Source: Methanogenium marinum (GTDB taxonomy: Archaea > Halobacteriota > Methanomicrobia > Methanomicrobiales > Methanomicrobiaceae). From it: a stretch of 64,000 bases of DNA. The stretch spans positions 1,745,276 to 1,809,275 of the forward strand of contig NZ_JAKELO010000002.1 of assembly GCF_028912405.1 (NCBI RefSeq), in the 5' to 3' direction. The position numbers were made by a program, and so were the translations under genes. The notes beneath the pieces were generated by a model that was not told where the DNA came from, did not search any database, and was given only the letters and a program-made list of their open reading frames with translations. Of this stretch, positions 49,326-55,411 are shown piece after piece; within the stretch, counting starts at the first letter, position 1, and every line of letters begins with the position of its first letter.

Positions 49326-50588
49326 ATGGTCCAGATATTTAGTTTCAGGGCGTTTCGCCCACCGACAGCAGAGGCACAGCAGATAGCCTCTGTCCCGTAT
49401 GATGTGGTATCAACCGAGGAATCGCGCGCACTCCTTGCAGAGAATCCGCAGAGCTTTCTTCAGGTCATCCGGTCAGAAGCAACGCTTCCCACAGATACAG
49501 ACCCCGCAGCACCGGTGGTTTATGAAACCGCAGCAGCAAATCTTCAAAAATTAATCGAAGACGGCCTTCTCATGCAGGATGCAGAGCCGGGTATCTATCT
49601 TTATCGTGTCAAGCAGGGTGGGAATCTCTACACCGGGTTTGTTGCAAATGTCAGTGTGGATGATTACCGGGATAATAATATTAAACGCCATGAGCATACC
49701 CGGTACGAGAAAGAAGAGGACCGGACCCGTCACATCGACACAACAGATATGCACACGGGCCTTGTGGTGCTCCTGTACCGTGACCCCGGGGAAATATTCC
49801 CCTACGTTTCCTCTCTTATTGCAGAGGGTGTACCCGACGGCGTTGTAAAGAGCGGTGCCGGTGATGTCCACGAAGTATTTCGCATTGCTGATCCAGAAGC
49901 AATTGGGACTCTGCAGGAAATGTTTGCAGGCGTTGATGCTCTCTACATCGCAGATGGGCATCACCGTGCCAAATCATCGGTCAACGTAGCAGATAAGCGC
50001 ACAGCAGAAGGACGCCTCACACCTGAATCCGAACGGTTCATGGCAATTATTCTGGCCGAAAACCGTGTGAAGATCCATGGTTACAGCAGGCTCTTGCGGG
50101 ATATCGGGGACTACACTCCTGAAACGTTCCTGGCAGGGCTCTCTGAGACCTTTTCCGTGAAGCCATATGGTGATATTGAGGACACCGTATTCTGCATCCC
50201 ACCGCTCGCTGAGTCTGCGGTGCCTGTTCATGTGGCGCACATGTATATGGATGGTGTATGGTACGAACTCTCATGCCCTGTGGACGCTGCAGCAGACCGG
50301 ATTGCTTCACTTGATGTATCTGTTCTTCAGAAGACTGTTCTTGAAGGCATGTTAGGTATCACCGATCCCCGTGGTGACCCGCGCCTGCAGTATCTGGGCG
50401 GTGCCCGGCCACTCTGTGATCTGCAGAACCGCGTAGATTCGGGTGAATTTGCTGTTGCATTCTCCATGCAACCTGTTCATGTGGATGACGTGTTGGGAAT
50501 AGCAGACGAGGGTGGTGTGATGCCACCGAAATCAACATGGTTTGAGCCAAAAGTGCTCAGTGGTCTTGTTCTTCATTCACTCAAATAA
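49326..50588 (+). CDS. DUF1015 family protein
   Basis: FRAFRPPTAEAQQIASVPYDVVSTEESRALLAENPQSFLQVIR; IADGHHRAKSSVN. Confidence 0.9.
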   Translation: MVQIFSFRAFRPPTAEAQQIASVPYDVVSTEESRALLAENPQSFLQVIRSEATLPTDTDPAAPVVYETAAANLQKLIEDGLLMQDAEPGIYLYRVKQGGNLYTGFVANVSVDDYRDNNIKRHEHTRYEKEEDRTRHIDTTDMHTGLVVLLYRDPGEIFPYVSSLIAEGVPDGVVKSGAGDVHEVFRIADPEAIGTLQEMFAGVDALYIADGHHRAKSSVNVADKRTAEGRLTPESERFMAIILAENRVKIHGYSRLLRDIGDYTPETFLAGLSETFSVKPYGDIEDTVFCIPPLAESAVPVHVAHMYMDGVWYELSCPVDAAADRIASLDVSVLQKTVLEGMLGITDPRGDPRLQYLGGARPLCDLQNRVDSGEFAVAFSMQPVHVDDVLGIADEGGVMPPKSTWFEPKVLSGLVLHSLK

Positions 50589-50727: not shown

Positions 50728-51297
50728 ATGAGTGAATATGGGGGGGGGATTCTCCTGCTGCTCGTGGCTTTGGCATTCTGCTCTGGGTGTGTAGGGGATG
50801 ACTCGATATTTTCGGGGGGGCATTCTCAATCATTTGGTTTGGAAATTCCCGATGAGCGGAGCACAGGGGTGACCCTTGATGAAGCTCTGGCTGACCTCGG
50901 TGTCAGTCAGAATGAAGAGATGATCTCGTTTCATAACCAGTCGTTTCTTGCAGTGCGGGGCATACAGATGGATGGGGGCGGGCGTGCCTCATCCTGGGCT
51001 CTCTTTGCACGACCGGAAAATGAGACGAGAACAGTAGTTCTTATCTATACTGAACGGGGCTGGAGTGAGTATGACTGGGAACAGGGTATTGATTATGTGC
51101 CTTTTGACCCCGCAGTCATCCTCTCTCCTGATGAACTATTCCGTCTTCACGAAGAGAAGTTATCAGGGTATTTCAGTTCGAATGAGACTGAGGCGGACCT
51201 CTTTCTTGGTAATGGTACCTATGTGACTACGATATACGGGCCGGATTTATTTGAGACATTCCGGTTTGAAGCAATTACAGGGGAGTGGATGCGATAA
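50728..51297 (+). CDS. Lipoprotein, first gene of pilin-like operon
   Basis: Lipobox-like LALAFCSGC near N-terminus; stop overlaps next ORF. Confidence 0.55.
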   Translation: MSEYGGGILLLLVALAFCSGCVGDDSIFSGGHSQSFGLEIPDERSTGVTLDEALADLGVSQNEEMISFHNQSFLAVRGIQMDGGGRASSWALFARPENETRTVVLIYTERGWSEYDWEQGIDYVPFDPAVILSPDELFRLHEEKLSGYFSSNETEADLFLGNGTYVTTIYGPDLFETFRFEAITGEWMR

Positions 51298-52385
51298 AGC
51301 GATTAAAAAATGAGGATGCTATCCTTTCTGTCGATTTTCTCGCCGGATTTACGATATTTATACTGTCACTTATCATGGTCATATCACTTGTGCCGGGGGT
51401 TCTTGCAGGTATCCAGAGTAATAATATTGACTATGATGCCGTAGCATACCGGACGTCGGTGATTCTGGTTGAGGACCCGGGGGCACCTTCCAATCCGTCG
51501 TGGAATCTGATGGGGGAATATGATATGCAGCACAAGGATGAGATCCAGCGACTGGGTCTTGCGGTCTCCAAGGATACTCCCAATATTCTTTCACGGGCAA
51601 AGGTTGACAAATTCTTTAATCGCACTCCTGACTTTACATTCTCTGCTGAGGATTTCCGTGAGAAAGTCATCTTTGGTGACCTCACCTATCTCTACAATAT
51701 CTCCCTGAGACTGGATACAGAAAGTGAGTCATATTACGCAGAAGGTGGGGACTCCGTGCCGACCTTCCAGTATGGGTATATGCGGCGCCTTGTCAAGGTG
51801 AAGGAACCCTCTGTTGCGGATATAAATTTCGCCAGCTATGCGTATACCGGGAGCGTTGAGAATGTGAGTGTTCTGTCCAGGAATTTTTCGGTGAAGATCC
51901 CGTATGAAGATCTCATAAACCGATCTGTGAACCCTGCATATCGCATTGATCCACAGTCCGAGCATCTCACGATTGTTCTCTCAAATATGTATTCTCACCT
52001 GAATACAACAACAGACAATGTTACAATGAATTTTGATGGTATTGGACTCTATAAGCAACTGGATGATGGCAGCACGATTCTCATCCCTGGTCTGTACCCA
52101 TATGACAATGATACCTATTCATTGAAGGTTGACGGGACATCGGTTCCCGCAGACTCCCCGAAGTTAGTCGACAACAGTTCGGTGATTAGGATGGAGCTAT
52201 ACCCGCCGTTGCCGTTCTCAAATGAGATCACCAGCTCCCTGAACGTGAAATTTTCATTCTCCTATGCGTATGCAGACAATCCCGCAGTACATAAGTATCT
52301 GAGCGGGACCCACCAGTATGACTATACCACAAATGTGACACAGCCAAAACTTGTTGACGGCGTGATGGAGGTGACAATATGGTGA
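51285..52385 (+). CDS. Pilin-like secreted protein (class III signal-like N-terminus)
   Basis: KRLKNEDA|ILSVDFLAGFTIFILSLIMVISLV followed by a large extracellular domain. Confidence 0.65.
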   Translation: MDAIKRLKNEDAILSVDFLAGFTIFILSLIMVISLVPGVLAGIQSNNIDYDAVAYRTSVILVEDPGAPSNPSWNLMGEYDMQHKDEIQRLGLAVSKDTPNILSRAKVDKFFNRTPDFTFSAEDFREKVIFGDLTYLYNISLRLDTESESYYAEGGDSVPTFQYGYMRRLVKVKEPSVADINFASYAYTGSVENVSVLSRNFSVKIPYEDLINRSVNPAYRIDPQSEHLTIVLSNMYSHLNTTTDNVTMNFDGIGLYKQLDDGSTILIPGLYPYDNDTYSLKVDGTSVPADSPKLVDNSSVIRMELYPPLPFSNEITSSLNVKFSFSYAYADNPAVHKYLSGTHQYDYTTNVTQPKLVDGVMEVTIW

Positions 52386-52933
52386 TGAATGACGAGGGGC
52401 AGCTCTACACGATTGAGGGCATCACTGCAGGAGTGATCATGCTCGTGACGGCGTTCACGATATTTAATTCCGGCATTGTCTATACGCCGGGGGATGCCCA
52501 TATCTCGGATATGCAGATTCAGCAGCTGGGATATGATGCCCTGCTGATGATGGATACGCCGGATGAATCGGTTTCTCTTAGTCAAAGTTCACTTGCAGAG
52601 ATGATCCAAAGCAATGATGGTGGGGGATTCAAAACACAATTTAATGAGTATCTGAGATTGCATACTGGTACCACTAAAGTTTTGGACAGTTTGGAATTCA
52701 ATGCAACCATCTTTAACAGGGTAACAAATGGTGGTGCTGAAACTATCCATTCATATCACTTCAGCAATTCTACGATGAGTGAAGTGAGTTTGTTGACCCG
52801 TGAACCTGCCATCAGTGTGACCCGCTATGTCTGGCTTTCGGATGCAAACTACCTGAATACTCACCTTGGGGCTGACGAGTATGACAACGATGCACAACTT
52901 GTCCTTCTGGAGGTGCTCATATGGAGACGCTGA
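52379..52933 (+). CDS. Pilin-like secreted protein
   Basis: MNDEG|QLYTIEGITAGVIMLVTAFTIF; overlaps both neighbours. Confidence 0.65.
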   Translation: MVMNDEGQLYTIEGITAGVIMLVTAFTIFNSGIVYTPGDAHISDMQIQQLGYDALLMMDTPDESVSLSQSSLAEMIQSNDGGGFKTQFNEYLRLHTGTTKVLDSLEFNATIFNRVTNGGAETIHSYHFSNSTMSEVSLLTREPAISVTRYVWLSDANYLNTHLGADEYDNDAQLVLLEVLIWRR

Positions 52934-53352
52934 ATGATGAAGGACAGTGGATTGTGATGATGGGTTTTCTCGTGGCAATTGGCATGTTCATGCTCGCCAT
53001 CATCGTCAGTCAGGCGCCGCTTGTCGGGCAGACGACCGCTGAGTCTGTGATGGAGTTCCCCAAAAATGAGGTGCAGGACCTTCGGGGGAAACTGGTCTCG
53101 ATGGGGAGTACATTGTCTGATGACTCTGCCAGTGTCACTCTCCAGGGTCGTTTCAGTGGAGATATAGCTCTGCTCTCGATGTCACGCAATAATGCGATTG
53201 CGACCTATTCTATTGATGGGTCAAACTGGAAAAAAAATGGAACATATGAGGACATTTTCTATACCTATCACCAGATTCATATCCATTACAATAATGGCAT
53301 CACTGAATACACTGAGGATCTGCTGCTTTCGCAGAGGAATGAGGATACATGA
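52921..53352 (+). CDS. Pilin-like secreted protein
   Basis: LNDEG|QWIVMMGFLVAIGMFMLAIIVSQ. Confidence 0.65.
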   Translation: METLNDEGQWIVMMGFLVAIGMFMLAIIVSQAPLVGQTTAESVMEFPKNEVQDLRGKLVSMGSTLSDDSASVTLQGRFSGDIALLSMSRNNAIATYSIDGSNWKKNGTYEDIFYTYHQIHIHYNNGITEYTEDLLLSQRNEDT

Positions 53353-53765
53353 AGAGAATCTACAGAAAACTGGATGATGATGGCGTCTCAATGACGACAG
53401 AATATCTTTCAATAACTTCTCTTCTGGTCGTTATGTTTGTCATCTTGATGTTTGTTGTGAACGCAGGCCTGATTGAAGGTCCGGCTAATACATTGAAATA
53501 TCACTCATATGTGGATATCGGAAATGGTGTGAGTGTTCGCATGGTTGACCTGTATGCCATTGCACCAGGAGATGGGACTATTGAGTCCCGTTTTGATCTC
53601 CCGGATGAGGTGGCAGGGGAAGATTATGAGGTTATTCTGGAAGGGTATGAAGAGAGCCAGTATATTCGGGTAACCGACGGGTCGATCTTTGCAGAAGTGG
53701 CCATATCGGGTATTGGTGCCAGCAGGGGGTCACTGGCAACACTACCGGCAGTGGAAATAATCTGA
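53349..53765 (+). CDS. Pilin-like secreted protein
   Basis: LDDDG|VSMTTEYLSITSLLVVMFVILMFVV. Confidence 0.65.
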   Translation: MKRIYRKLDDDGVSMTTEYLSITSLLVVMFVILMFVVNAGLIEGPANTLKYHSYVDIGNGVSVRMVDLYAIAPGDGTIESRFDLPDEVAGEDYEVILEGYEESQYIRVTDGSIFAEVAISGIGASRGSLATLPAVEII

Positions 53766-53794
53766 TATCCTATAACTCCTCAGGGGTGTGAATT

Positions 53795-54619
53795 TTGATG
53801 AAAACATGTATACGGAAAGATGAATCTGGGGTATCTGAAGCCATTGGTTTTATCCTGATATTTACGATTGTGATTCTGGGAATCTCAATTGTTACACTCT
53901 ATGGATACCCCGTGCTTGCAGATGCAAAAATCAATTCAGATGAGAAGATAATGGAGCAGAATATGATTGTCCTCCAGAATGATATCAAGATTCTGACCCG
54001 GAACAATGTGCCATACCGCGACACAACAATCGGTGTTTCGGGTGGCAGCGTATTTGTGACCAACTCAACTGCGTCGGAGAACGGGGGTGGCGAGCATTTC
54101 AATCTCAACTATTATGATGGTACAAATTGGATCACTACTCCATATTATCCGGGATCGTTGGAATTTGTCTCTGACCAAGGTACTGCGGTTATTTCGGTAG
54201 CCAATGGTGCGGTTATCAAACGCCAGCAGGATCTGGATGGGTCTTCCATGGTCTCTGATCCCCGCTGGTTTTATGATGAGGATGAAGATACACTTGTCTT
54301 ATTTATGACTAATTTATCCTCATCACAAGAGATGACGCTGGGTGGCATCGGGACTATCCAGATGGCGATGCTTGGTGCACCGGAAATCCATGACTTCAGT
54401 TATACCACCGGCACGCGTGAAGTAAAAATAGAGTATTTCCCTGACTTGGCTGATGACTATTCCCGTGCATGGGAAAACTACCTGACCGGTCCCTATATTG
54501 TGGATAGTGGATTCCTGATGGATGCACCTACTGGAAATCCGGGTGATCCAGACATATACCGGCTGAATGTGACTCGCTTAGTAATAAAAGAGTACAATGT
54601 TGAAATCCTGGGAATCTAA
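53795..54619 (+). CDS. Archaeal type IV pilin-like protein
   Basis: RKDESG|VSEAIGFILIFTIVILGISIVTLYG, a classical archaeal prepilin N-terminus. Confidence 0.75.
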   Translation: MMKTCIRKDESGVSEAIGFILIFTIVILGISIVTLYGYPVLADAKINSDEKIMEQNMIVLQNDIKILTRNNVPYRDTTIGVSGGSVFVTNSTASENGGGEHFNLNYYDGTNWITTPYYPGSLEFVSDQGTAVISVANGAVIKRQQDLDGSSMVSDPRWFYDEDEDTLVLFMTNLSSSQEMTLGGIGTIQMAMLGAPEIHDFSYTTGTREVKIEYFPDLADDYSRAWENYLTGPYIVDSGFLMDAPTGNPGDPDIYRLNVTRLVIKEYNVEILGI

Positions 54620-54758: not shown

Positions 54759-55079
54759 TCAGAGATATTTATTACGCTGCAACCACTCACGTTGCGGGCG
54801 GGTATAACGGTATATGATATCAGCCTTCTCGTCCTGGAATGACCATGGCACTACGATTAATACGTCCCCCTCACGAATCCAGACCCGCTTTTTAATCTTC
54901 CCTTTAATCCGCCCCGTTCGTGTTATTCCATCAAAGCAGCGTACCCTGATATGGTTTGCACCGAGCATGAGATCTGCTTCTGCAAAAATCTCCCGGTTCC
55001 TTTTATTGGGTAGTTTCACCCGTACAATTGCCGGCGGTGCGGTTTGTGTATTTTTTTTCCTGTTTTGGTTTGCCAGAAG
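54759..55079 (-). CDS. Translation initiation factor aIF-1A (start codon uncertain)
   Basis: VRVKLPNKRNREIFAEADLMLGANHIRVRCFDGITRTGRIKGKIKKRVWIREGDVLIVVPWSFQDEKADIIYRYT; possible CTG start at 55079, GTG at 55085, or ATG at 55130. Confidence 0.85.
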   Translation of the reverse strand, partial: LLANQNRKKNTQTAPPAIVRVKLPNKRNREIFAEADLMLGANHIRVRCFDGITRTGRIKGKIKKRVWIREGDVLIVVPWSFQDEKADIIYRYTRPQREWLQRNKYL

Positions 55080-55411
55080 ACTCACTCCTTTTATATATAT
55101 GTGTCCTCTTCGGATAAAAAGGTCATCCATGATGGTAATTCCAGAACAATTTGTGAGTTTTGCCGGGTTTTTCTGCAATTTGTGGCCAAATATCTGATTT
55201 TTGCCGGACATTTTGCAGCAGAAACCACTTCCCTCTCCTGTATCTTTATCAGATTATTGAGTTTTCCTCTTTTCCGGTGCGGTTCATTCTCTTTGCAGGG
55301 CTTCAAATGAGAATTTAGTAATAGTAATCCCCGCGCGGAAATGGTGGTGAAAAACCTGAGGGGTATTCCCTTTTGATTCCTCATAATTTGGATGTCATCC
55401 CTTCCTTATGA

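What the first reader, a model, noticed from the sequence alone, without database searches (positions are those of the whole stretch)
50728..54619. Five consecutive type IV pilin-like genes plus a lipoprotein in an overlapping operon
Five adjacent ORFs begin with a short charged peptide, an acidic-G/A site and a long hydrophobic helix (NEDA|ILSVDFLAG, NDEG|QLYTIEG, NDEG|QWIVMMG, DDDG|VSMTTEY, KDESG|VSEAIG). Four junctions overlap by 4-13 nt. The mature domains differ, as expected for a set of minor pilins with distinct roles. No assembly ATPase or TadC-like gene is present in the window. The layout recalls haloarchaeal operons of DUF728x pilin-like proteins, but the function is unassigned.
Basis: partly seen in the sequence, partly recalled or inferred. 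Interest (0 to 1): 0.65.

Follow-up and report, generated by a model that had tools for sequence, protein, structure and literature searches.

The report
Five-pilin block separated from its motor
A methanogen carries a tightly packed set of five different pilus-subunit genes, kept in the same order across its whole order of archaea, whose likely assembly motor is encoded elsewhere in the chromosome; it is a new, well-defined member of a known but experimentally unstudied pilus type.

Summary
In a Methanogenium-like genome, 50728-54619 encodes a lipoprotein and five prepilin-like proteins (P1-P5). P1, P2 and P5 are DUF7287, DUF7288 and DUF7289; P4 is DUF7266-like; P3 occupies the DUF7261 position. 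G/A at the predicted cleavage site is kept in 104 of 104 aligned orthologues. P1-P5 order was the same in 20 of 20 loci read across Methanomicrobiales, between DUF1015 and eIF1A wherever those flanks were in reach, and recurs in Halobacteria, where an ATPase-TadC pair directly precedes it in 12 of 12 loci. In Methanomicrobiales the ATPase and TadC lie elsewhere, so these pilins must work in trans. Co-occurrence points to one of this genome's two ATPase/TadC operons: of 97 near-complete genomes, 76 of 76 with the block carry the 1107-aa ATPase (23 of them lack the other one) and 15 lack both. Of six exceptions, five end at contig breaks; one seems real. I read it as the trans-encoded pilin set of a PilB4-like archaeal type IV pilus, most likely minor or initiating subunits. 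That role, and filament formation itself, are inferred. In the window P4 is frameshifted near its end, probably a homopolymer error.

The parts
50728..51297 (+). Predicted lipoprotein (189 aa, lipobox ..CSGC), first gene of the block; found in most Methanomicrobiales loci, not recognised at this position in haloarchaeal blocks
   Evidence: no Pfam, NCBIfam or PADLOC family
51285..52385 (+). P1, DUF7287 prepilin-like, 366 aa; predicted cut NEDA|ILSVD, Asp at +5 in 20 of 20 aligned rows; model: N-terminal helices plus large beta domain
   Evidence: Pfam PF23958 E 9e-9; model pLDDT 88, pTM 0.81
52379..52933 (+). P2, DUF7288 prepilin-like, 184 aa; NDEG|QLYTIEG, Glu at +6 in 22 of 22
   Evidence: Pfam PF23959 E 2.9e-9
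52921..53352 (+). P3, prepilin-like, 143 aa; NDEG|QWIV with Q, W, I invariant in 22 of 22 and no acidic residue at +1 to +10; stands where haloarchaeal blocks have DUF7261
53349..53765 (+). P4, DUF7266-like prepilin, 138 aa as read; frame shifts in a G run near 53725, and the C-terminus conserved in relatives is encoded in another frame to a stop at about 53791
53795..54619 (+). P5, DUF7289 prepilin-like, 274 aa; DESG|VSEAIGF; model: 59-residue N-terminal helix plus all-beta domain
   Evidence: Pfam PF23960 E 9e-17; model pLDDT 91.5, pTM 0.82
49326..50588 (+). DUF1015 gene, conserved upstream neighbour (not part of the system)
54759..55211 (-). eIF1A gene, conserved convergent downstream neighbour (not part of the system)

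Best explanation
The block is the pilin set of an archaeal type IV pilus of the haloarchaeal PilB4 kind, encoded away from its motor. Proposed steps: (1) five prepilins and a lipoprotein are made from one compact transcription unit [inferred from overlapping genes]; (2) the one prepilin peptidase found in the genome, PibD/FlaK-type, cuts each prepilin after the conserved G/A [inferred from sequence]; (3) the mature pilins are assembled through their N-terminal helices by the 1107-aa ATPase and its two TadC proteins, encoded about 0.35 Mb away in an operon with Roadblock/LC7 proteins and lying 5 kb from the peptidase gene [inferred from co-occurrence and synteny]; (4) because the five mature domains differ and each is normally single-copy, they most likely act as minor or initiating subunits, with a stand-alone pilin such as the Pilin_N-like protein in L122 as a possible major subunit [inference only]. 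Likely outcome: a surface filament for attachment or aggregation [inference from what is known of archaeal type IV pili].
For: Prepilin-type N-termini with G/A at -1 in 104 of 104 rows. Same five-gene order in 20 of 20 loci across the order, in named Methanomicrobiales contigs, and in Halobacteria, where ATPase-TadC comes directly before it in 12 of 12, with the same Pfam families. Two further loci (L113, L114) have it convergent with ATPase/TadC, one more (L115) adjacent. Co-occurrence in 97 near-complete genomes: block with the 1107-aa ATPase 76 of 76; 23 of these 76 lack the 687-aa ATPase; 15 lack both. Five of the six genomes with the ATPase but no block break off at contig ends at the locus, leaving one, G047. 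The other ATPase/TadC locus carries its own Arch_flagellin-family pilin. One prepilin peptidase (PF01478 search), 5 kb from the 1107-aa ATPase operon. All 12 block-adjacent haloarchaeal ATPases score higher against the 1107-aa ATPase than against the 687-aa one.
Against: The ATPase tree does not group the block-adjacent ATPases with the 1107-aa one; its backbone is unresolved, and L115 is adjacent to an ATPase of another branch. Double absences stem from few events: one genus (12 of 15 genomes) plus G069, G117 and the fragmented G092. PilB and PilC pairs can serve several pilin sets (Makarova 2016, PMC4858521; Legerme 2019, PMC6491452). No solved structure matches the P1 or P5 model. No filament, processing or expression data exist here.
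Confidence: 0.72

Rival explanations
1. The pilins are general-purpose and are assembled by either ATPase/TadC pair (or by the archaellum motor in relatives that have one), with no dedicated motor.
For: Published cross-complementation of PilB/PilC pairs and modular evolution (PMC6491452, PMC4858521); unresolved ATPase tree; L115 is next to a different ATPase type.
Against: 76 of 76 block-bearing near-complete genomes have the 1107-aa ATPase while 23 lack the 687-aa one; the 687-aa locus has its own archaellin-family pilin.
Confidence: 0.15
2. The block forms a short secretion pseudopilus or an envelope-spanning complex, not an extended pilus, helping to export or display the lipoprotein or other proteins.
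For: Five distinct low-copy pilin-like proteins recall the pseudopilin sets of type II secretion (own knowledge); a lipoprotein leads the block in most Methanomicrobiales loci.
Against: No substrate or secretion gene is linked; the lipoprotein was not found at the head of the haloarchaeal blocks with the models used.
Confidence: 0.09
3. The genes encode ordinary signal-anchored membrane proteins, not pilins.
For: Single N-terminal hydrophobic helix; no experimental cleavage; P1 and P5 folds have no PDB match.
Against: G/A at the cut in 104 of 104 rows in five different families, charged residues before it, order-wide linkage, and adjacency to T2SSE/TadC in other lineages.
Confidence: 0.04

Closest known systems
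PilB4-type pilin set of Halobacteria (Makarova et al. 2016, Fig. 4B; H. volcanii PilB4 locus, HVO_1160)
   Same: The same families in the same order (DUF7287, DUF7288, DUF7261 position, DUF7266, DUF7289); in the haloarchaeal loci examined the set follows an ATPase with extra N- and C-terminal regions, as described for PilB4
   Different: Here the set is uncoupled from ATPase/TadC, usually preceded by a lipoprotein gene, and fixed between DUF1015 and eIF1A; the identity of my haloarchaeal loci with the PilB4 locus is inferred from the paper's description, not from locus tags
Minor pilins of the Methanococcus Epd system (clade 1)
   Same: Several different minor prepilins encoded together in a methanogen
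   Different: Another ATPase clade and a dedicated EppA peptidase (PMC4858521); no sequence link was tested here
Bacterial minor (pseudo)pilin sets such as GspH-I-J-K
   Same: Several different low-copy pilins in one operon, one of which lacks an acidic residue near +5 (P3 here; GspK from own knowledge)
   Different: No sequence or fold match found; only an analogy

Membership tests
Archaeal type IV prepilin | Short charged leader, G/A before the cut, then a hydrophobic helix at the N-terminus | tested here: met
Archaeal type IV prepilin | Prepilin peptidase of the PibD/FlaK kind in the genome | tested here: met
   PF01478 and PF06847 in L121
Archaeal type IV prepilin | Long N-terminal helix followed by a beta domain | tested here: met
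   P5 model clearly; P1 with shorter, broken helices; P2-P4 not modelled
Archaeal type IV prepilin | Cleavage by the peptidase and incorporation into a filament | not testable with these tools
   needs mass spectrometry and microscopy
PilB4-type euryarchaeal pilus | Pilin families of the haloarchaeal block in the same order | tested here: met
   P3 only by position, motif and a weak DUF7261 match of one relative
PilB4-type euryarchaeal pilus | Pilins encoded with the ATPase and TadC | tested here: not met
   ATPase/TadC lie elsewhere in this genome and ATPases are distant in the Methanomicrobiales compared; met in Halobacteria. The literature treats in-trans pilins as common, so this does not exclude membership
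PilB4-type euryarchaeal pilus | ATPase orthologous to the block-adjacent haloarchaeal one | tested here: inconclusive
   unresolved backbone; higher pairwise scores; co-occurrence
Archaellum | Arch_flagellin domain in the subunits and FlaI motor | tested here: not met
   P1-P5 do not match PF01917; no FlaI-like hit in this assembly, which is incomplete

The most novel reading that the evidence does not exclude
P1-P5 form a fixed-order tip or initiation complex, an archaeal counterpart of the bacterial minor-pilin tip, with gene order mirroring assembly order; it primes filaments whose motor and major subunit are encoded elsewhere, under control of Roadblock/LC7 proteins.
Probability: 0.25. Interest if true: 0.65.

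Novelty: new member of a known kind. Interest (0 to 1): 0.4.

Why it matters
The protein families are still named only as domains of unknown function, and none of the four searched DUF names occurs in the held papers. Their shared gene order across several lineages of the phylum, and the near-exact match between the block and one ATPase/TadC operon, give a concrete and testable partner assignment for a pilus type whose function has not been established. It is also a clear case of a pilin set that keeps its own order while separated from its motor.

Tried and rejected
Defence system: no PADLOC match. NCBIfam: no match. Archaellum: no Arch_flagellin match for P1-P5 and no FlaI-like hit in this genome. 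Assigning the partner ATPase by phylogeny: the tree backbone was unresolved, so I used co-occurrence instead. Structural relatives: no significant PDB fold or sequence match for P1 or P5; the lectin-like hits for P1 have TM-scores below 0.25 and are disregarded. Apparent exceptions to co-occurrence (G005, G041, G057, G073, G105) were traced to contig breaks next to the locus or inside it; G047 remains an apparently real exception. Literature search for the DUF names returned no paper. A first run of the prepilin rule read the wrong sequence and found nothing; it was rerun with the window and slightly looser settings.

Full report
Observation. The window lies at C2:1745276-1809275 of a 2.24-Mb, two-contig assembly. 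The best named matches to P5 are Methanogenium contigs (83%, 81% and, for M. cariaci, 74% identity). The region 50728-54619 holds six plus-strand ORFs at the reported coordinates: a lipoprotein (50728-51297), P1 (51285-52385), P2 (52379-52933), P3 (52921-53352), P4 (53349-53765) and P5 (53795-54619). Overlaps of 13, 7, 13 and 4 nt are as stated. No T2SSE or T2SSF gene is in the window: the genome's hits lie elsewhere.

Identity. Pfam gives DUF7287 for P1 (E 9e-9), DUF7288 for P2 (2.9e-9) and DUF7289 for P5 (9e-17); P4 is a sub-threshold DUF7266 match, P3 a partial sub-threshold DUF7299 match. With relatives, P4 is DUF7266-like in 18 of 19 members, best E 1.3e-5. P3 stays weak, but the gene in its place in a haloarchaeal block is DUF7261 and starts with the same kind of motif (RGQVILIG). 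NCBIfam and PADLOC have nothing.

Signal. A simple prepilin rule matches 7 of 62 non-overlapping ORFs of the window, five of them the consecutive block genes. The rule is my own, with thresholds loosened once after a run that had read the wrong sequence, and is not FlaFind. Stronger is the conservation: the residue before the predicted cut is G or A, and nothing else, in 17, 22, 22, 21 and 22 non-gap rows of P1 to P5 (104 of 104). P1 has Asp at +5 in 20 of 20; P2 has Glu at +6 in 22 of 22; P4 has Glu at +6 in 20 of 21; P5 has VSE-x-[IV]-G; P3 has invariant Q-W-I and no acidic residue close by.

Structure. AlphaFold2 on locus alignments gave a P5 model (pLDDT 91.5, pTM 0.82) with one helix from residue 11 to 69 followed by an all-beta domain, a classical pilin layout, and a P1 model (pLDDT 88, pTM 0.81) with N-terminal helices and a large beta domain. 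Neither matches a solved structure with E <= 0.001, nor by profile. P2, P3 and P4 were not modelled.

Conservation. P5 was found in 97 of 120 genomes of the order at E <= 0.001, 91 of them strongly. In 20 of 20 loci read in full, P1-P5 keep their order and strand; the lipoprotein precedes P1 in most; DUF1015 and eIF1A flank the block wherever the fetched stretch reaches them. One genome has two tandem copies (L057). In 80 loci of named genomes the order is the same wherever the contig is long enough, apart from a few loci whose mechanical ORF assignments are irregular; P1/P2 overlap by 7 nt in 63 of 70 and P2/P3 by 13 nt in 56 of 77.

Wider distribution. DUF7288 occurs in 161 of 247 genomes sampled from the phylum; among 14 control genomes only Haloferax volcanii has it. 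In 12 of 12 haloarchaeal-type loci the order is ATPase (830-1385 aa), TadC, then the pilin genes; individual members below the model threshold were missed in some loci, and reading two loci in full shows all five positions filled. In L113 and L114 the block is convergent with ATPase/TadC, in L115 adjacent. In five further loci of other families (L116-L120) the pilin order is the same without an ATPase in the stretch, mostly with an additional DUF7289 protein.

Which motor. This genome has two ATPase/TadC loci. L009 holds a 687-aa ATPase, a fused TadC and an Arch_flagellin-family pilin. L010 holds a 1107-aa ATPase, two TadC proteins and two Roadblock/LC7 proteins; the only PF01478 prepilin peptidase hit lies 5 kb from its ATPase operon. 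Genomes of the order were scored for each ATPase at thresholds set by the gap between orthologues and paralogues. Among 97 near-complete genomes: block and 1107-aa ATPase 76; block without it 0; ATPase without block 6; neither 15 (Fisher p 3.5e-13). For the 687-aa ATPase: 53, 23, 7 and 14. These p-values ignore shared ancestry: 12 of the 15 double negatives are one genus. Of the six ATPase-only genomes, five break off at contig ends in or next to the locus, two of them showing a piece of the block; one, G047, shows no block in the regions read. The ATPase tree itself does not settle the matter, though all 12 haloarchaeal block-adjacent ATPases score higher against the 1107-aa ATPase.

Literature. 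Makarova et al. 2016 (PMC4858521) describe a euryarchaeal pilus variant typified by H. volcanii PilB4, with its own pilin set, an ATPase with extra N- and C-terminal domains in Halobacteria, and modular exchange of pilin sets and motors. Pohlschroder and Esquivel 2015 (PMC4371748) suggest that PilB4/PilC4 assemble a separate pilus-like structure. Legerme and Pohlschroder 2019 (PMC6491452) show limited cross-complementation. PMC12542753 states that the impact of PilB4-PilC4 remains to be established. The present block fits this known but unstudied kind; that my haloarchaeal loci are the PilB4 loci is inferred from that description. The supplementary tables of the 2016 census could not be read here, so the Methanomicrobiales blocks may already be listed there.

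Frameshift. P4 of the window ends differently from all its relatives; the conserved C-terminus is encoded in another frame after a G run near 53725 and runs to a stop at about 53791, just before P5. With an assembly of only 81% estimated completeness in two contigs, a homopolymer error is the likeliest cause, but reads were not available.

Verdict. It is a new member of a known kind with a useful partner assignment. Shown: sequences, conservation, linkage, co-occurrence. Inferred: cleavage, filament formation, minor-pilin role, motor assignment.

Noticed in passing
window 53700-53795: Frameshift near the end of P4 in a G run; the C-terminus conserved in relatives is encoded in another frame. 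Probably an assembly error.
   Followed up: partly
L009 (G000:C2:1206001-1225000): Second ATPase/TadC locus with an Arch_flagellin-family pilin and two KaiC-like ATPases beside V/A-type ATP synthase genes.
   Followed up: partly
L010 (G000:C2:2140001-2158000): ATPase/TadC operon begins with two Roadblock/LC7 proteins, conserved with the operon in the closest relatives, hinting at polarity or GTPase-type control of the pilus.
   Followed up: partly
L057 (G101:C1:1303000-1320000): Two tandem copies of the five-pilin block in one genome.
   Followed up: no
L116-L120: Blocks of other families carry a second DUF7289 protein (in L117 with a DUF7308 domain) after P5 and no ATPase in the stretch read.
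   Followed up: no
G000 whole genome: No FlaI-like archaellum ATPase found although congeners G037 and G079 have one; the assembly is only 81% complete by estimate.
   Followed up: no
L123 1732-2214 (-): Small Ras/Arf-like GTPase gene, of interest given the Roadblock proteins of the pilus operon; not linked by any test.
   Followed up: no
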